Of a stretch of 51,590 bases of DNA, positions 31,519 through 38,580 are shown in pieces. This DNA is from a virus. The DNA is taken from the IMG/VR virus record IMGVR_UViG_3300036859_000764, positions 1-51,590 of that record. One strand, 5' to 3'. The translations under genes and the position numbers were made by a program. How positions within the stretch are numbered: the stretch's first letter is position 1; each line of letters opens with the position of its first letter. A model generated the notes under the pieces. That model made no database searches. It saw only the letters and a program-made list of their open reading frames with translations, and had not been told where the DNA came from.

Positions 31519-31829
31519 CAGCGCACCTTCCTGTACGGATCGTCGCTGTCCCCAACCTCTGGTCGGAAGCGGAATCCTCGCGAGAGGTTCTTCAGCAAGA
31601 CGCCGATGTCGGCCCCTGGCGAAATGAGGGCCTTGACTTCCGCGTCAGTCGCGTAGCCGATGACGACGTCGTGCAGCAGGCGAGCCTTCGCGATCTCGGA
31701 CGATGCTGCGATCTTGGTGACGACTACTTCGGCCGGGTCGTAAGCCTTCATCCGATCTAGGTTGTCCTCCTGCAAGATGACGAAGATGCTGTATTCGGTG
31801 GCGGAGATGGTGAATGGGATCACGAGCAT
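31518..31829 (-). CDS. Hypothetical protein after SbcC-like gene
   Basis: This 103-aa protein starts MLVIPFTISATEYSIFVILQ. A beta-rich N-terminus leads to helices (EVVVTKIAASSEIAKARLLH, then YATDAEVKALISPGADIGVL). It overlaps the SbcC-like stop as ATGA, so it is translated with the recombination genes. No family recognised. Confidence 0.6.
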   Translation of the reverse strand: MLVIPFTISATEYSIFVILQEDNLDRMKAYDPAEVVVTKIAASSEIAKARLLHDVVIGYATDAEVKALISPGADIGVLLKNLSRGFRFRPEVGDSDDPYRKVR

Positions 31830-34309
31830 CACGCGGCCTCCGGAGTGATGCGCCCGTCCGCCACCATCAGACGCACGTCCGCGCGCTCCCAGACCTCCGG
31901 TGAGTGCGCCACGAAGAGGCACTGCTCGAAGCCCCCGAGATCCATCGCCCGGCGCAGCATCTCGATGTAGTGCTGGGCGTTCTCGGGGTCGAGGGCGCCG
32001 GCGGTCTCGTCACGCCAGAGGGTTCGGTACTGGATGCTGTTCTTGCGTGCATTGAAAATGCTGAGACCCAGGCCGATGGCCTCGGCCACGATGACGCCCT
32101 CGCCACCGGACAGGCCCTCGATCTTCTGGTGGGCGATCCCGCGGTCGGCGTCGTACACCCGGATCTCGAACGTCTCTGCGAACTCCCCCGGCGCCGTCTT
32201 CTTCTCCCGGAGCGTCTCCAGGTGGACGCTGAACCGCGGCCCGTAGCAGGCCGTCAGGAGGTCGTTGCAGAGGCGGGAGACCTCGGGGCCGGCGGCGTCG
32301 ATTTCGAGGGCCTGCACGCCATCCCGGCCGAGGGCGCGCTCGAGGATCGTCCAGTCGGAGAGGTGGAGGGCGGCCTCGTCCAGGCCCTTACGCGCCTCCT
32401 CCAACTCCTTGCCCATGGTGGCGGCGTGCTCGACGGCGGCGGCCAGTTTCCCGCGGTTCTCGTCGGCGGTGCGCAGGCTGGCCTCGGCACTGCTGCGCTG
32501 TCTGGCCCAGTCATTGACCCTGGCGAACTCGATGCCGACGCTCAGTCCGCCGAGGCTCTCGGCCGCCTCGTGCTCCTTCGTCGCGTCCGCGAGCCGCTTC
32601 TGGGACTCCCGTAGGCGCTCCTTGGCGGCCTTCACCTTCTCGTCCGCGTCGAGTAGCGCCTCGGTGAGGTCCTGCTGGATGCTGGCCGTCTCGGCGTCGA
32701 TCTGCTTCCGCAACCCCTCGGCGGCCTGGACGTCCGCCTCGAGCGCGCGGTCGAGGGAGGTCCGCTCGGCGTCGGTCTCCCGCAGTTGCCGCGCCGCGGT
32801 GGCGAGGACTTCGGCCAGAGCCGCGGTCCGCTGCGCCGTGGGGATGCGGAACACGATCTGGCCGAGGCGGGCCGCGGCCTCGTCTTCCTCCGTGTGGATC
32901 CGCGCTACGCGGTCGTCGAGGGCGGCCGCCTTCTGCCGCGCCTCCTCCGTCTGGGCGATGGTGGCGGGGTCGACCCTCACGTCGGCGATCGCCAGCTTCG
33001 CGTCCCGGGCGCCCTTCAGGAGAGGGCATCTCGCCGACAGGTCAACGTTGATCTTGTGTGGTATGCCCGCGGAGGATCCGGCACCTGTCCACGTCAATGA
33101 CTCCGAGCACGGGGCTTGGTCGATGAGCCCGGCCTGCTTCCGCAGTTCCCGGATCCGCGCGAGGGCCGCGTTCTCCGCGTCTTCGAGGCGCCGCTCCGCC
33201 CCGGCGAGTTCCGCCGCCGCCACGTCCTTCTGCTGGTGGAGGGCGGTGTACCCCTGGATCCTGGCCTTGACGCTGGCCTCCTCGGCGCGGAGGTCGGTGA
33301 TCTCCTGCTCGGCGGCCTGGACCGCGGGGGCCTCGTCCATCGTCTTTCTCAGGTCGTCGACGCGCTTCGAGAGGGCCTTCGCCGCCTCGTCGTGGCGCTC
33401 CTGTGCCCGCTGCCGCATCACGTCGGGGTCCCGGCTCCCGATGGCCTGCCGGCGCTTCAGGGCGGTACCTTGGGCCACCGCGCCCAGGGACTCCGCGGCG
33501 CTCAGGGCGTCCCGGGCTGCGGCGTACTCGCGCGTGGCGGACTGGCGGGCCATCTCGAGCCGCACAAGCCGCTCCTGGGCGCCCTTGGCGCGCTCCAGTG
33601 CCGAGATGGCTGCGGCCTCTTCCTCACGGGCGGTCTGGAGGGCGCCGGCCGCCTTCTCGGCATCCTCCCGAGCGCGCTCGAGCTCGGCGGTCAGGGCCGG
33701 GAGTTGCCCCACCTCCTCCTCCCGGATAGACACCTCGCGGCGCAGGGCGGCCAGGGCGGTCTCAATCTTCTGGCGCCGCTCCTTCGCCCGGCCGGCCAGC
33801 GCTTCGAGGTGGCCGAGGCCCAGGAGTTCCGCGAACAGCTTCTTCCGCTCGGACGGCTTCGCCCCGATGAGGCTGCCAACTTTCGACTGAGCCGAAAAGA
33901 CGCTCGCGAGGAAGAGGTCCTCCGTGCCGAACAGCCGCCGAATCTCCTTCTCGTAGTCGTCCGCCTTCCCGTTGGTGACCGGCTCCCCGTTCCGGAACAC
34001 GTACCCTTCGGTCTTCTCGCGCGCGGCGTCCACCTGCAGGCGGACCTTCAGGAAGTCGGGGGGCGAGCCGCCGTCCACGAAGTCCGCCTCGATGAACGAG
34101 TCCCCGTGCGTCCAGTTGTAGAGGGACCCCGGGCGGGTCGGGAACGCCTTGTAGAGGAGTGCGGGGGTCGCTTCCAAGGCGGTGCTCTTGCCCGCGCCGT
34201 TGCGCCCCACGAGCGCGATGAGCCCCGGGCCGAGTTGGTCGAAGTCGATGCGGACCGGCTCCCCGTTGAAGCGCGTGAGCCCGGCGAACGCCAGCTTGCG
34301 GAGCCTCAC
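31829..34309 (-). CDS. SbcC/Rad50-like SMC ATPase subunit
   Basis: This 826-aa protein starts at a GTG overlapping the upstream stop (RLRKLAFAGLTRFNGEPVRI). It has the ABC/SMC layout: Walker A GRNGAGKS at residues 35-42, long paired coiled coils, an ABC signature LSGGEGVIVAEAIGLG and Walker B in TLWRDETAGALDPEN near the C-terminus. Two Cys in the hinge region are about 26 residues apart (APCSESL and SARCPLL) instead of a tight CxxC zinc hook, so the hook may be altered. With the SbcD-like gene it likely forms a nuclease that opens DNA ends for recombination. Confidence 0.85.
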   Translation of the reverse strand: MRLRKLAFAGLTRFNGEPVRIDFDQLGPGLIALVGRNGAGKSTALEATPALLYKAFPTRPGSLYNWTHGDSFIEADFVDGGSPPDFLKVRLQVDAAREKTEGYVFRNGEPVTNGKADDYEKEIRRLFGTEDLFLASVFSAQSKVGSLIGAKPSERKKLFAELLGLGHLEALAGRAKERRQKIETALAALRREVSIREEEVGQLPALTAELERAREDAEKAAGALQTAREEEAAAISALERAKGAQERLVRLEMARQSATREYAAARDALSAAESLGAVAQGTALKRRQAIGSRDPDVMRQRAQERHDEAAKALSKRVDDLRKTMDEAPAVQAAEQEITDLRAEEASVKARIQGYTALHQQKDVAAAELAGAERRLEDAENAALARIRELRKQAGLIDQAPCSESLTWTGAGSSAGIPHKINVDLSARCPLLKGARDAKLAIADVRVDPATIAQTEEARQKAAALDDRVARIHTEEDEAAARLGQIVFRIPTAQRTAALAEVLATAARQLRETDAERTSLDRALEADVQAAEGLRKQIDAETASIQQDLTEALLDADEKVKAAKERLRESQKRLADATKEHEAAESLGGLSVGIEFARVNDWARQRSSAEASLRTADENRGKLAAAVEHAATMGKELEEARKGLDEAALHLSDWTILERALGRDGVQALEIDAAGPEVSRLCNDLLTACYGPRFSVHLETLREKKTAPGEFAETFEIRVYDADRGIAHQKIEGLSGGEGVIVAEAIGLGLSIFNARKNSIQYRTLWRDETAGALDPENAQHYIEMLRRAMDLGGFEQCLFVAHSPEVWERADVRLMVADGRITPEAA

Positions 34310-34557
34310 GACCGGTTCTCGGTGAGCGGGATGCTGTGGCGGATCATGGGCGCGACGTGCGTGGGCGCCTCGGACTGGTACGTTCGGTAGCGCTCCTCGT
34401 GCCCTGATGCATCGCAGTCCGTGCGGCGGCACCGCACTGCTTCGAGCGTGCGCACCTCGTAGAGCCCAGGCTTGACCATCCGGTACTCGTGAGCCTGAGG
34501 CTCGTCCACCATGACGGCCCACGAGTGGAGACCGATGACACAGAGGGGGTTACGCAC
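34306..34557 (-). CDS. DUF1660-like small protein
   Basis: This 83-aa protein starts at GTG (MRNPLCVIGLHSWAVMVDEP), eight bases before the end of the SbcD-like gene. Two Cys (RCRRTDCDASG) may bind metal. The opening LCVIGLHSW resembles small phage proteins of the DUF1660 type. Coupled between the SbcC- and SbcD-like genes. Role unknown. Confidence 0.65.
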   Translation of the reverse strand: MRNPLCVIGLHSWAVMVDEPQAHEYRMVKPGLYEVRTLEAVRCRRTDCDASGHEERYRTYQSEAPTHVAPMIRHSIPLTENRS

Positions 34558-35719
34558 CTGACGCCTCCCGCTCGATCTCGTCGAGCTTCTCGTTCAGCCG
34601 CTCCACCGTCGCCGGCGGCAGGACCTCTCCCTTCGCCTCGAAGTACGAGGCGACCTTCTCCTGCGTGGTGCGGGCCTCGGCGATGCTCGCGCTTCGGACG
34701 TGCGCCTGGTGCTCGACGACGACCTCGAGCTTCACGTCGGCGGCGCCCGCCTCTTCCAGCAGTTTCCGGAGCGCGCCCTCGTCGATGCTCCCGAGGTCCT
34801 GCGATCGGACCTTGTAGCGGAGACGGACGAGGGCCCCCGCGAGGCTCAGCGCGCTCGTGTCAGTACCGAGCACGTCGGCCGTGTCGCCGGTGGTGAAGTC
34901 AGCTTCGAGGAGAACGATCGCGCGCGCGGGCAACTCGCGGAACTCGTTGCTCACGAACTTGCCCGCATCATCGAAGGTGACGAGCCGCCATCCCTTCTGC
35001 TCGGGCTCTCCGAAGTTGTGGCGGATCGGGCTCCCGGAGTAGGCCACGCGCCCGTCCATCCACTCCTGCGTCTTGTGGACGTGACCCAGAGCAGCGTACT
35101 CGGCACCGATCTCCTGAATGGCGTAGGGCGAGAGTTCCACCGTCGTTCCCTGGATCACCTGGCCCGTGCTCATGACGGAACCCTGGACCATCGCGTGGGA
35201 GACGAAGATGGGGATGAGCCCTGCGTTGCGGACGCTGGCGGCCTCGGTGCGGAAGCCGATCAGGAGGTCCTCGGCGGTCTCGATCGTGGCCCGGCGCGTC
35301 GTCTCCGTGTCGACCACGGCGTCGAGGCCGGCGACGAGGTGCGCCTTGTCGAACCACGGCAGGGCCAGCATGGCGAACGGGCCCATCCGCGTTGACGTGC
35401 CGGGCCGGGTGGGCCGGTCCACGATCACGATGGGCGAGTCCGTCTGCAGCATGTTGAAGAGCGAGAGGTCGCCCGCGATGTCGTGGTTGCCCTTCACGCC
35501 AAACACGGGGGCGATGTCTGATGCGCTCATGAGGAAGCTGGCCAGGGCGATGCGGTCCGCCGGCGTGGAACGGCGGTCGAAGAAGTCGCCCGCGTGGACG
35601 ATGGCGTTGACCTTCTCATCGGCGGCCTGCTCGATGAAGGCGTCGAGGACGCGGGCGAGGTCCTGCGGCCGGCGCTGGTCGCAGAAATGGGTGTCGGAGA
35701 TGTGGGCGAGGCGGATCAC
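34550..35719 (-). CDS. SbcD/Mre11-like nuclease subunit
   Basis: This 389-aa protein starts at a GTG overlapping the previous stop (MIRLAHISDTHFCDQRRPQD). It carries the metallophosphoesterase motifs in order: D-x-H in HISDTHF, GDFFDR, GVKGNHDI, a His in IFVSHAM and GHVHKT. Its C-terminal half would bind DNA and the SbcC-like partner. It is truncated relative to host SbcD by lack of the long capping domain. Together they make 3' ends or remove hairpins during recombination. Confidence 0.85.
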   Translation of the reverse strand: MIRLAHISDTHFCDQRRPQDLARVLDAFIEQAADEKVNAIVHAGDFFDRRSTPADRIALASFLMSASDIAPVFGVKGNHDIAGDLSLFNMLQTDSPIVIVDRPTRPGTSTRMGPFAMLALPWFDKAHLVAGLDAVVDTETTRRATIETAEDLLIGFRTEAASVRNAGLIPIFVSHAMVQGSVMSTGQVIQGTTVELSPYAIQEIGAEYAALGHVHKTQEWMDGRVAYSGSPIRHNFGEPEQKGWRLVTFDDAGKFVSNEFRELPARAIVLLEADFTTGDTADVLGTDTSALSLAGALVRLRYKVRSQDLGSIDEGALRKLLEEAGAADVKLEVVVEHQAHVRSASIAEARTTQEKVASYFEAKGEVLPPATVERLNEKLDEIEREASGA

Positions 35720-36861
35720 TTGGAGCCGCCCGGGGTTGCCGCCGCCCACTTCGCGCGTACCTCGTCCGCCGTGAGGGTGGGCCAGCGCGGGATGCCGAGG
35801 CTCTTCAGCGTCTTGTGCGCCTCGTAGTCGAACGTGCGGCTCGGATAGCAACTCTCCGGGCACCGGATCACGCCGCCGAGCTTCGCCTTCGACTTCTCGG
35901 CGTCGCCCGGGGTAACCTCACGCTGACAGCCGCAGGCGCAACCGCATACGACGAGGCTCGGCGTGTCGAAGTCGGGCAGTTCCTCGTCGAGCGGGGCACT
36001 AGTCTGTTGAATCTCGGCGTCCTTCTTGGGTGGCTCCGCTGCCTTGGTGGTGGTCGGCGGTGGCGGTGGCGTCTTGTCGCCGTTCGCTTCCGACAGTTCC
36101 GGCACCGTGACCATCGACCGCTCTGCCGGAGGGAGCGCACCGAAGAGGCGACCCTCGTTGGCGAGCGTCTGCTGGATGGCGGCGCGCTTCTGGTCGGGGT
36201 CGCTGATGTCCCACACCTGGACGAGCTTGGGGACGATGAAGGGCTTGCGCTTGAGGTCGCTGACGTTGTAGCTGCCCAGGATCGCGAACAGATTGCGCAC
36301 GGCGGCCTCGATCGCGAGCGTCTGCACCTTGGCGTTGAGGAAGTGCCGGTCGATGGCGAGCCGTGCCGGGCTCATCCCTTTGATCTCGTCGGAGCCCTCG
36401 GACAGGTCGAGGTCGCGGTGTCCCGGGTACTGGCGCATCGCGCCGTCGAAGTCCTGGTGGTACAGGATGGCTTCGTAGTCGCGGTAGTGCGGGCGCGACT
36501 GGTCATCCTGACGGCGCAAAACCGGATTCGCGCCCGCCGCGGCCAGCAGCGCCAGCAGACCGCCCTTGCCCAGGGAGACCACGCCCTTCTTGACGTCGCC
36601 GTGGTACTTCTTGCTGAAGTAGCAGTGCGGGCCGTGGCCGCTGTATTCGTCGACCATCGCAATGGTCGGGTCGATCCAGACCGACCGAAGGCTGATCTGG
36701 TGGAAGGGTTTGACGAAGTCGACGCGCGCCACGGGAGTGAGGACGAAAGCGGCGTCCTCTGTCCGGAGTCGCTCGAGGATTTGCGAGAGCTCGGCCAGGT
36801 CGCCGAGCGGCCGTGCTGGGACGATGTCCCCCGCGGCCTTGACTACGATGGACTGAGACAT
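35716..36861 (-). CDS. Recombination-associated phage protein with zinc motif
   Basis: This 381-aa protein starts MSQSIVVKAAGDIVPARPLG with AGGAGG eight bases upstream. The middle part, with SPARLAIDRHFLNAKVQTLA and AIEAAVRNLFAILGSYNVSD, has the look of RecT/Redbeta-like or DdrB-type single-strand annealing proteins, but no family is certain. The C-terminal region has CGCACGCQREVTPGD and CPESCYPSRTF, a Cys-rich zinc site. Its place before SbcD/SbcC-like genes suggests a recombination pathway. The zinc tail is unusual for a known annealing protein. Confidence 0.55.
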   Translation of the reverse strand: MSQSIVVKAAGDIVPARPLGDLAELSQILERLRTEDAAFVLTPVARVDFVKPFHQISLRSVWIDPTIAMVDEYSGHGPHCYFSKKYHGDVKKGVVSLGKGGLLALLAAAGANPVLRRQDDQSRPHYRDYEAILYHQDFDGAMRQYPGHRDLDLSEGSDEIKGMSPARLAIDRHFLNAKVQTLAIEAAVRNLFAILGSYNVSDLKRKPFIVPKLVQVWDISDPDQKRAAIQQTLANEGRLFGALPPAERSMVTVPELSEANGDKTPPPPPTTTKAAEPPKKDAEIQQTSAPLDEELPDFDTPSLVVCGCACGCQREVTPGDAEKSKAKLGGVIRCPESCYPSRTFDYEAHKTLKSLGIPRWPTLTADEVRAKWAAATPGGSK

Positions 36862-36872
36862 ACGTACGCCTC

Positions 36873-37031
36873 CTATCGCTCCGTGCGGAGCTCCTTGAAT
36901 TTCTCGGGGCTGACGTGTTCGCTCTTGGACGTGTGGTCGAGGTCGCCCTGGAAGACGCGCCAGACGATCCCGGCCGCGATCAGGATGAGGAACGCCACGA
37001 GCCGGTAGACGAACCACTCGAGCGCGCTCAT
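36873..37031 (-). CDS. 52-residue membrane protein
   Basis: This 52-aa protein starts MSALEWFVYRLVAFLILIAA. One membrane helix occupies residues 7-25, followed by a short charged tail. The ATG overlaps the next gene's stop as ATGA. Coupled with another membrane gene at 37028-37225, it may form a small complex. No family. Confidence 0.6.
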   Translation of the reverse strand: MSALEWFVYRLVAFLILIAAGIVWRVFQGDLDHTSKSEHVSPEKFKELRTER

Positions 37032-37225
37032 CGGCGCTCCCGGTCGAGGCGGTGCAGTTCTTCCGCGGCGTCCCACAGGATCAAGACGACGGCCACGGTG
37101 GCGCTCACGGCCAGCACGACCATTGCGGCGATTTGCAGCGGAGTGCACTTGCCGAGGTACCCGACCATGCCAAAGATCAGCGCGGCGGCGAAGGCCGCCA
37201 GCGAGAGCGTGAGTGGGCGGGTCAT
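37028..37225 (-). CDS. Small two-span membrane protein
   Basis: This 65-aa protein starts MTRPLTLSLAAFAAALIFGM with two hydrophobic segments (residues 5-24 and 30-50, AAMVVLAVSATVAVVLILWD) and a short Arg/Glu tail. The ATG overlaps the methyltransferase stop. Its size and topology fit a phage membrane factor such as an exclusion protein, but nothing specific points to that. Confidence 0.6.
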   Translation of the reverse strand: MTRPLTLSLAAFAAALIFGMVGYLGKCTPLQIAAMVVLAVSATVAVVLILWDAAEELHRLDRERR

Positions 37226-38580
37226 GCCGTCATCTCCAACCGCAGACGGCCCGCAAGAGTGCGGAATGCGAGGCCAGCCACGAGCGGAACGACCCCGTTT
37301 CCAGCGGCGCGCAGGCGCTCCACCCGGTGGGCCATCCCATCAGCCAGTCCACGAACGACGGATTCAGGCGCAGCGTGTCGCCCGGTTCGCGTACCTGTCT
37401 GATGAGGCCCCGGTTCGACGCGGGCGTCTGTTTGTCGCCCATGTCGCCCACCGTTGGCGTTTGCCACTGCTGGCGCGAGGTCGGGTCGGGCGGCGAGGAC
37501 GGCGGCCCATCCGGCGGCGTCTCCGGGCCCGGGCGGAAAAGGTGGGAGGTCTCGACCATCGCGTCGAGTTGCCTGCGCCGCTGGCCCGGACGTGCCGCGC
37601 CCTTCCAGTCGTTCGCGCCGGGCGTCGGGAAGAGGAGCGCCGCTTCCTGAAGCGAGGACGGCCCCTTCACCGTGTTCGTGTTCTTGTTCGGGGCTTGCGG
37701 ATTCGTGGCTGGAGTCGGCCAAGCGGTGCATTCCTTCGTGCCGTGCACCGAACCACCGGCAGACTGGAGTTGCGCACGGGCCACGGCCGATTGGAGCGTC
37801 GCGCCGCCCGGACCCTTGCAGCCCGCGGTCGGGGTCGGCCACTCCTTGATCGCACCCGATAGGTCGTGCGCCCGATGGTGCCGATCCGCGAGGGTCGCGC
37901 TCTCGCTCCGACCCGTGCCGTCCGCGTCGTGGGCGTTCGGTGTCGGCCACGCCGCCGCCGACGAGGAGAGATCGTCCGACAGCATCCCCGCCCGGTTGAC
38001 CGCTCCGCGCCCCACCTTCCGGCGCCACGCCTCCGTGACCGGCCGGGTCGGTGCTCTCCGCGGGTCGCCATCCCGCGCCGATACGGTGGGCCAGGATGAA
38101 GAGCCGCTCGCGCTTGTGCGGCGCTCCCACGTCGCTCGCTCGAAAACTGTCCCACTCCGCATCGAACCCGAGCGAGGCAAGGTCTTCCAGCACGAGGGCG
38201 AGGCCATGCCGGAGGAGCCCGGGGACGTTCTCGAGGAAGACGAGGGCGGGGTCGACCTCTCGGATGATCCGGGCGATGTCGGGCCACAGCCACCGGTCGT
38301 CGCTGGTCCCGCCGCGCTTTCCTGCGACCGACCACGGCTGACACGGGAAGCCCGCAGTGACGATATCCACGACTCCACGCCACGGCTCGCCTGCGAAGGT
38401 AAGCACGTCGTCCCAGACAGGAGCGAGATCCAGGGCCTTGTCTTCCATCCGCGCCACGAGGACGGCCGCTGCATAGGCTTCCCGCTCGACGTGCACCACG
38501 GTGCGATAGGACTCTCCGAGAGCGAGCCGGAGCCCCAGATCGAGCCCACCGACCCCCGAACAGAGAGCCAAGCCATTCAC
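37222..38580 (-). CDS. DNA cytosine-5 methyltransferase
   Basis: This 452-aa protein starts at GTG (MNGLALCSGVGGLDLGLRLA), overlapping the 39-aa gene's stop. Motif I is LCSGVGG, motif IV has catalytic Cys80 in TAGFPCQPWS, motif VI is FLENVPG (residues 115-121) and motif VIII is APHKRERLF (153-161). The variable middle has repeated VAD- and LAD-type segments (VADTERPRRG, VADPDRGLQG, LADSSHES). It ends with AGNGVVPLVAG, the motif X region. It probably methylates host or phage DNA to avoid restriction. A second overlapping frame over the C-terminal 60% carries its own methyltransferase-like motifs (see findings). Confidence 0.85.
   Translation of the reverse strand: MNGLALCSGVGGLDLGLRLALGESYRTVVHVEREAYAAAVLVARMEDKALDLAPVWDDVLTFAGEPWRGVVDIVTAGFPCQPWSVAGKRGGTSDDRWLWPDIARIIREVDPALVFLENVPGLLRHGLALVLEDLASLGFDAEWDSFRASDVGAPHKRERLFILAHRIGAGWRPAESTDPAGHGGVAPEGGARSGQPGGDAVGRSLLVGGGVADTERPRRGRHGSERERDPRGSAPSGARPIGCDQGVADPDRGLQGSGRRDAPIGRGPCATPVCRWFGARHEGMHRLADSSHESASPEQEHEHGEGAVLASGSGAPLPDARRERLEGRGTSGPAAQATRRDGRDLPPFPPGPGDAAGWAAVLAARPDLAPAVANANGGRHGRQTDARVEPGPHQTGTRTGRHAAPESVVRGLADGMAHRVERLRAAGNGVVPLVAGLAFRTLAGRLRLEMTA
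37230..38576 (-). other. Overlapping second open frame inside methyltransferase gene
   Basis: The same minus-strand region is open in a second frame, from an ATG at 38576 four bases after the methyltransferase GTG to a stop at 37230. Its N-terminal half is Ser/Arg shadow, but the second half has repeats of the form WPTP (AWPTPNAHDADGTG, EWPTPTAGCKG, AWPTPATNPQA) and ends LNPSFVDWLMGWPTGWSA. The WPTP and WLMG-WP patterns are typical of another type of phage cytosine methyltransferase tail. I report the dual coding signal without claiming two products. Confidence 0.5.

What the first reader, a model, noticed from the sequence alone, without database searches (positions are those of the whole stretch)
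37222..38580. Methyltransferase gene open in two frames, each with methyltransferase-like motifs
The main frame holds motifs I, IV, VI, VIII and X. The overlapping frame (37230-38576) is open almost end to end. Its second half carries WPTP repeats and LNPSFVDWLMGWPTGWSA, typical of the C-terminus of another group of phage C5 methyltransferases, while the same DNA in the main frame reads VAD/LAD repeats and LADGMAHRVERLRAAGNGVV. One DNA stretch therefore encodes two family-like C-termini. This could mark an ancient frameshift that created one methyltransferase group from another, or dual coding.
Basis: partly seen in the sequence, partly recalled or inferred. Interest (0 to 1): 0.75.

Follow-up and report, generated by a model that had tools for sequence, protein, structure and literature searches.

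The report
Two-frame, two-subunit phage DNA methyltransferase gene
One stretch of this phage's DNA is read in two overlapping frames, one giving the catalytic part of a cytosine-methylating enzyme and the other most likely its DNA-recognition part; the same arrangement recurs in phages and plasmids of many bacteria, where databases list only one of the two proteins.

Summary
Frame A (37222-38580, -) is a C5-cytosine methyltransferase with motifs I, IV, VI, VIII and X. Frame B (37230-38576, -), +1 to A, is a real second gene. Evidence: (1) in 72 relatives fetched by frame A alone (GC 46-62%), B has 1 stop where synonymous codon shuffling predicts 180. (2) The fastest-varying codon position shows A selected in the N-terminal third, B in the middle, both at the C-terminus. 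(3) The window's own B scores 137 bits against a profile of distant B proteins; none of 4,000 A-synonymous versions exceeds 81. (4) In two other phage groups B opens inside A, in one of them behind its own ribosome-binding site, and A's synonymous changes fall 2-2.5-fold from that point. (5) In four contigs A's middle is full of stops while B is intact. Best explanation: one mRNA encodes two subunits, A with the catalytic motifs and X, B with the variable recognition region (WPTP repeats) and motif IX. This resembles M.EcoHK31I, a naturally split methyltransferase, but B spans nearly all of A and holds the whole selected middle. Activity, assembly and expression are inferred. Structure prediction of B failed.

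The parts
37222..38580 (-). Frame A (alpha): C5 cytosine DNA methyltransferase, 452 aa, GTG start; motifs I, IV, VI, VIII and X
   Evidence: PF00145 2.6e-35; PHROG 363 9.8e-62; N-term and C-term exceed all B-synonymous versions
37230..38576 (-). Frame B (beta), +1 relative to A, 448 aa, ATG start 4 nt inside A: variable recognition region with WPTP repeats plus motif IX
   Evidence: PHROG 1008 1.2e-23; 137.4 bits vs at most 80.7 in 4,000 A-synonymous versions
38085..38580 (-). N-terminal third, frame A selected (motifs I-VIII); B open but weakly constrained in sequence in the window
   Evidence: A 200.8 bits vs at most 64.2 when B codons are randomised; B N-part reached by 163 of 4,000 A-synonymous versions; family rates
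37396..38085 (-). Middle, frame B selected: WPTP-like repeats; frame A here is open but its sequence is not conserved
   Evidence: B 22.7 bits, 0 of 4,000; A not above null (345 and 817 of 2,000); family rates
37222..37395 (-). C-terminal dual-coded segment: motif X in A and motif IX plus tail in B on overlapping bases
   Evidence: B 53.8 bits vs at most 27.6; A 34.3 bits vs at most 32.7
37317..37367 (-). Motif IX in frame B (LNPSFVDWLMGWPTGWS)
   Evidence: family profile matches in-frame motif IX of L116/L117/L120/L125, probability 97%
37285..37317 (-). Motif X in frame A (RLRAAGNGVVP)
38427..38456 (-). B patch WRGWKTRPWI inside A's motif I-IV region; third-position change is suppressed here in relatives
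   Evidence: block 60-80
38573..38580 (-). Overlapping start codons GTGAATGG (A GTG at 38580, B ATG at 38576); ABMM1-like relatives have ATGAATGAG with the same 4-nt offset

Best explanation
This is a C5-cytosine DNA methyltransferase made of two polypeptides read from overlapping frames of one gene. Subunit alpha (frame A) holds the AdoMet-binding and catalytic motifs I-VIII and the closing motif X, joined by a stretch whose own sequence is not conserved. Subunit beta (frame B, +1, starting 4 nt inside alpha) holds the variable target-recognition region, a series of WPTP-type repeats, and motif IX. Ribosomes start at either of the two adjacent start codons. The two chains then assemble, beta supplying the small DNA-recognition domain that ordinary C5 methyltransferases carry in the same chain between motifs VIII and X. 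Shown here: both frames are open and conserved, selection moves from A to B to both along the gene, B starts inside A in two related groups (with its own SD-like site in one), and motif IX is in B while X is in A. Inferred: that both proteins are made in the window's phage, that they form one enzyme, and that the B middle recognises the target site.
For: Stops: 72 relatives fetched by frame A only, GC 46-62%: B-frame stops in the N region 1 observed, 180 expected by synonymous codon shuffling, 461 by random synonymous choice; the other frame has 665. Window family: 2 observed vs 93 and 540 expected over 93 genes. Selection: in 33 relatives A position 3 is fastest through most of codons 20-200, whereas in codons 200-340 A position 1 (B position 3) changes at 0.14-0.33 and A position 3 (B position 2) at 0.02-0.05; same pattern in the second group, motif IX block A1/A3 = 3.6. 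Window itself. Independent start: in C72C1-like phages B opens at codons 53-61 in all 40 genes with SD-like aaaggag/aaaggtg before ATG/GTG/TTG in most; fourfold sites of A differ at 0.357 before and 0.141 after that point, and 0.180 vs 0.085 in Lactobacillus prophages. B without intact A: L012-L015. Motif IX: hhalign 97%. B matches PHROG 1008 in every case tested. Controls: ordinary single-chain MTases L126 and L216 have 26 stops each in +1.
Against: No expression, interaction or activity data. AlphaFold2 models of B had low confidence (mean pLDDT 52), so the small-domain fold is not shown. In the window, the N-terminal third of B is only weakly better than shadow translation (163 of 4,000), and no clear SD is seen before the window's starts. 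PMC3404938 places the predicted recognition domain of M.EcoHK31I in the large subunit, unlike here. L012-L015 separate motif X from motifs I-VIII by stops in frame A, which the simple two-chain model does not explain.
Confidence: 0.85

Rival explanations
1. Frame B is only a shadow: its openness and resemblance follow from the conserved A protein and high GC.
For: In this GC-rich record alternative frames are often long; B's N-terminal part in the window is close to what A implies.
Against: B stays open in relatives of 44-56% GC; A-synonymous rewrites never reproduce the window's B; the middle evolves as frame B; B survives where A's middle has stops; A's synonymous rate drops where B begins.
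Confidence: 0.03
2. A programmed +1 frameshift near the end of motif VIII joins A's catalytic half to B's recognition half, giving one chain.
For: B is always +1 of A; frame A stops soon after motif VIII in L012-L015 and in mycobacteriophage Twister.
Against: B is kept stop-free far upstream of motif VIII, has its own start in two groups and an SD-like site in one, and A is kept open to motif X in most genes, which a frameshift alone would not require. In the window the fused chain would lack motif X.
Confidence: 0.06
3. B is a real overprinted protein with another job (for example a methylase regulator or an anti-restriction factor) and A alone is the methyltransferase.
For: B has no Pfam family and no confident fold.
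Against: B carries the motif IX that other relatives carry in line with motif X; A lacks a conserved recognition region, and the bases under motif IX evolve as frame B; PHROG 1008 also covers the Twister second gene with LPTP repeats, IX and X (2.8e-87).
Confidence: 0.06

Closest known systems
M.EcoHK31I (and M.EaeI), two-polypeptide C5 methyltransferase
   Same: Large subunit with motifs I-VIII and X, small subunit with motif IX (PMC3404938). From my own memory, not checked here, the small subunit is encoded in an alternative frame inside the large one.
   Different: Here B runs almost the whole length of A (448 vs 452 aa), B carries the whole selected variable region with six WPTP-like repeats, and A's middle is not conserved. 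PMC3404938 puts the predicted recognition domain of M.EcoHK31I in the large subunit. Sequence kinship with M.EcoHK31I was not tested (sequence not in hand).
M.AquI, split C5 methyltransferase
   Same: Catalytic motifs I-VIII and the recognition/IX part are separate polypeptides (PMC3404938). Mycobacteriophage Twister gp79/gp78 (L117) looks arranged like this.
   Different: In M.AquI motifs IX and X are both in the small subunit; in the window X stays in A and the two frames overlap throughout.
PHROG 1008 and PHROG 363 (both 'DNA methyltransferase')
   Same: PHROG 1008 is the family of frame B (1.2e-23), PHROG 363 that of frame A (9.8e-62).
   Different: The library lists them as separate families; nothing returned says they are two frames of one gene.
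Single-chain C5 methyltransferases (M.HhaI, Dcm type)
   Same: Frame A's catalytic core: M.HhaI chains matched at 1e-14 over residues 65-166.
   Different: Single-chain enzymes have recognition domain, IX and X in one frame; the +1 frames of two examples have 26 stops each.

Membership tests
C5 cytosine DNA methyltransferase (PF00145) | Motifs I, IV (PC), VI (ENV), VIII and X in one chain | tested here: met
   Frame A
C5 cytosine DNA methyltransferase (PF00145) | Motif IX and recognition domain between VIII and X in the same frame | tested here: not met
   Both lie in frame B; so A alone is not a complete single-chain member
M.EcoHK31I-type two-polypeptide C5 methyltransferase | Large subunit with I-VIII and X but without IX | tested here: met
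   definition from PMC3404938
M.EcoHK31I-type two-polypeptide C5 methyltransferase | Small subunit with motif IX, encoded in an overlapping frame | tested here: met
   that M.EcoHK31I itself uses an overlapping frame is from memory
M.EcoHK31I-type two-polypeptide C5 methyltransferase | Recognition domain in the large subunit (as predicted for M.EcoHK31I in PMC3404938) | tested here: not met
   A's middle is not conserved, B's is
M.EcoHK31I-type two-polypeptide C5 methyltransferase | Both polypeptides needed for methylation | not testable with these tools
   Needs an enzyme assay
M.EcoHK31I-type two-polypeptide C5 methyltransferase | Sequence homology to M.EcoHK31I alpha and beta; YGGCCR specificity | not tested
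   Reference paper and sequence not available in the tools
M.AquI-type split methyltransferase | Motifs IX and X both in the second subunit | tested here: not met
   X is in frame A in the window; met in L117 Twister
Programmed frameshift gene | Second frame expressed only as a fusion downstream of a shift site | tested here: inconclusive
   B open and with its own start upstream argues against it; fusion not excluded in Twister-like genes

The most novel reading that the evidence does not exclude
A large class of phage and plasmid methyltransferases keeps catalysis and DNA recognition in two overlapping frames of one gene. This would be one of the most widespread long same-strand overlapping gene pairs in DNA phages. 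The repeat-rich recognition subunit could change specificity while the catalytic frame stays fixed, and the low-complexity VADT/LAD stretches of annotated phage Dcm proteins would be shadows of its WPTP repeats.
Probability: 0.6. Interest if true: 0.85.

Novelty: new variant of a known kind. Interest (0 to 1): 0.75.

Why it matters
If right, many phage 'DNA cytosine methyltransferase' and 'hypothetical protein' entries are half an enzyme: of 18 related annotated loci looked at, 12 list only frame A, 6 only frame B and none lists both. Expressing the annotated protein alone would then give an inactive enzyme or lose specificity. It also offers a natural system for how two proteins share one stretch of DNA, with regions selected in one frame, the other, or both, across phages and plasmids of Pseudomonadota, Lactobacillus, cyanobacteria and others.

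Tried and rejected
Shadow-frame explanation: tested by stop counts and synonymous rewriting, rejected. The count of A-frame stops in the middle was discarded because A was defined by its own stop codon. Pairwise codon-position test of the window against its nearest relatives: set aside, because the middle is too diverged and a script fault put some pairs out of frame. Structure of B alone, twice: low confidence, so no fold search was made. A genome-contig scan with a B protein found nothing; with an A protein it found three dual loci. Literature: no paper found on overlapping frames in phage C5 methyltransferases; a review of overlapping genes in viruses does not mention them among its passages on methyltransferases; the primary M.EcoHK31I paper is not held. 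Pfam, NCBIfam and PDB sequence searches with B gave nothing meaningful.

Full report
OBSERVATION. The window is an IMG/VR virus record of 51,590 bases. On the minus strand, 37222-38580 encodes a 452-aa C5 cytosine methyltransferase (frame A; PF00145 2.6e-35; motifs I, IV, VI, VIII and X located). The +1 frame (frame B, 37230-38576) is open for 448 codons from an ATG 4 nt inside A. Seventeen other large ORFs of the same record never have more than 196 open codons in +1. B has no Pfam family but matches PHROG 1008, 'DNA methyltransferase', at 1.2e-23.

RELATIVES. Viral contigs fetched with A or with B encode both: in all 113 loci held at that point the B match is the +1 frame of the A match. In the window family +1 has almost no stops while +2 mostly has 5-28. 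Because B-fetched loci are biased, a second group was fetched with a frame-A protein only (Acinetobacter phage ABMM1). In 72 usable genes of 46-62% GC, the first 160 codons hold one B stop, against 180 expected when synonymous A codons are shuffled and 461 with random synonymous choice; the +2 frame has 665 (two artefact rows contribute nothing). Nearly all begin ATGAATGAG(C/T)TGG, which reads MNEL in A and MSW in B, and B ends close to A's stop, mostly within 20 nt.

SELECTION. In 33 close relatives of the window group, substitution rates by codon position change abruptly along the gene. In codons 20-200, A's third position is fastest in all but one block. In codons 200-340, A's first position, which is B's third, changes at 0.14-0.33 while A's third, which is B's second, changes at only 0.02-0.05, the mark of a B-coding region. 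At the C-terminus both are restrained. The ABMM1-like group behaves the same way, with the motif IX block at A1/A3 = 3.6. The short leader upstream of A's motif I also evolves as frame B.

THE WINDOW ITSELF. An HMM built only from the distant ABMM1-like B proteins gives the window's B 137.4 bits. Rewriting A with synonymous codons 4,000 times never exceeds 80.7. By segment, B's middle (22.7 bits) and C-terminus (53.8 bits) are never reached, while the N-terminal third is reached by 163 of 4,000. The reciprocal test keeps B and randomises its codons: A's N-terminus (200.8 bits) and C-terminus (34.3 bits) are never reached, A's middle often is. So the window shows A selected at the start, B in the middle and both at the end.

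INDEPENDENT TRANSLATION OF B. Two further groups were fetched by A proteins: phage C72C1-like and Lactobacillus prophages. In all 62 genes B contains stops in the first 50-60 codons of A and is then open to near A's end. In most of the C72C1 group the opening carries an SD-like sequence (aaaggag, aaaggtg, aaggag) followed by ATG, GTG or TTG, mostly at codon 57. A's fourfold-degenerate sites differ at 0.357 before and 0.141 after that point (88 of 93 pairs lower); in the Lactobacillus group, where the first candidate start is a TTG, 0.180 and 0.085 (196 of 227). Pairs are not independent, so these are effect sizes rather than p-values. In the window family the two starts are 4 nt apart and probably share one ribosome-binding site; no clear SD is visible in the window itself.

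B WITHOUT AN INTACT A. In L012 and L014, read in full, frame A's middle has many stops while B is continuous (509 aa in L012) and motif X is still conserved in frame A downstream; L013 and L015 show the same match pattern. How motif X reaches the enzyme there is not explained.

WHAT B IS. B's C-terminal LNPxWVEWLMGWPxGWT matches motif IX of relatives that carry IX and X in one frame (hhalign probability 97%). Related loci show three partitions: IX in B and X in A (window, ABMM1, C72C1 and Lactobacillus groups); only the LPTP-type middle in B with IX and X in A (Gordonia phage SchottB L120, Megaera plasmid L125); and LPTP repeats, IX and X all in the +1 gene (Twister gp78, L117). Filuzino (L116) has repeats, IX and X in frame A plus a B-frame patch after motif VIII. 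PHROG 1008 covers the B protein of every type tested. Ordinary single-chain enzymes have 26 +1 stops each (L126; L216).

MECHANISM. The simplest reading is a two-subunit C5 methyltransferase: alpha = motifs I-VIII and X, beta = recognition region plus IX. Fragments of the C5 methyltransferase M.SssI split between motif VIII and the recognition domain reassemble into active enzyme (PMC3404938), and M.EcoHK31I is a natural enzyme with I-VIII and X in one subunit and IX in the other (PMC3404938). That M.EcoHK31I also uses an overlapping frame is from my own memory. The window differs in the extent of the overlap and in having the selected middle wholly in B. AlphaFold2 models of B were too poor to use.

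BREADTH AND ANNOTATION. The arrangement was seen in phages or prophages of Acinetobacter, Salmonella, Vibrio, Stenotrophomonas, Pseudomonas, Klebsiella, Acidovorax, Microcystis, Synechococcus and Lactobacillus, on Leptospira, Roseicitreum, Citrobacter and Acinetobacter plasmids, and in Acinetobacter, Methylovulum and Verrucomicrobiota genome contigs. Six of 99 genomes sampled from the genus of the Acinetobacter locus hold a B of the ABMM1 type. In 18 annotated loci the record lists A only in 12 and B only in 6, never both (with frames).

Noticed in passing
L012, L013, L014, L015: Frame A is broken by stops between motif VIII and motif X while B is intact and motif X is still conserved; how motif X is supplied is unclear.
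   Followed up: partly
L116 (Mycobacterium phage Filuzino) 1432-3042: A-frame gene with LPTP repeats, IX and X in one frame, but right after motif VIII frame B is open for about 130 codons with its own LPTP module; looks like an intermediate arrangement.
   Followed up: no
L120 (Gordonia phage SchottB) and L125 (Candidatus Megaera plasmid): Only the middle is in frame B; motifs IX and X are both in frame A. In L125 GC is only 44%.
   Followed up: partly
L124 (Leptospira interrogans plasmid pLiSL34) 1438-2124: Near the C-terminus the A frame runs into what is elsewhere the B tail (VEPLETHKFQQWLDLHG) and lacks motif X, while B stops early: a frameshift in the motif IX/X region, so this copy may be damaged or rearranged.
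   Followed up: no
L101, L111, L078: Methyltransferase gene interrupted by inserted coding sequence that looks like an IS110-type transposase (from reading the translations of L101 and L111, not searched).
   Followed up: no
L122 (Roseicitreum antarcticum plasmid pRA03) 1928-2677: RefSeq annotates frame B, from an internal start, as 'DNA methyltransferase' (WP_223814412.1) and leaves the catalytic frame A unannotated.
   Followed up: yes
window 31829-35863 (-): Phage-encoded SbcC-like and SbcD-like subunits (PHROG 77 2e-49, PHROG 100 1e-31) downstream of the methyltransferase on the same strand.
   Followed up: no
window 35815-37008 (+): 397-codon ORF antisense to the gene at 35716-37017; probably a GC-rich shadow frame.
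   Followed up: no
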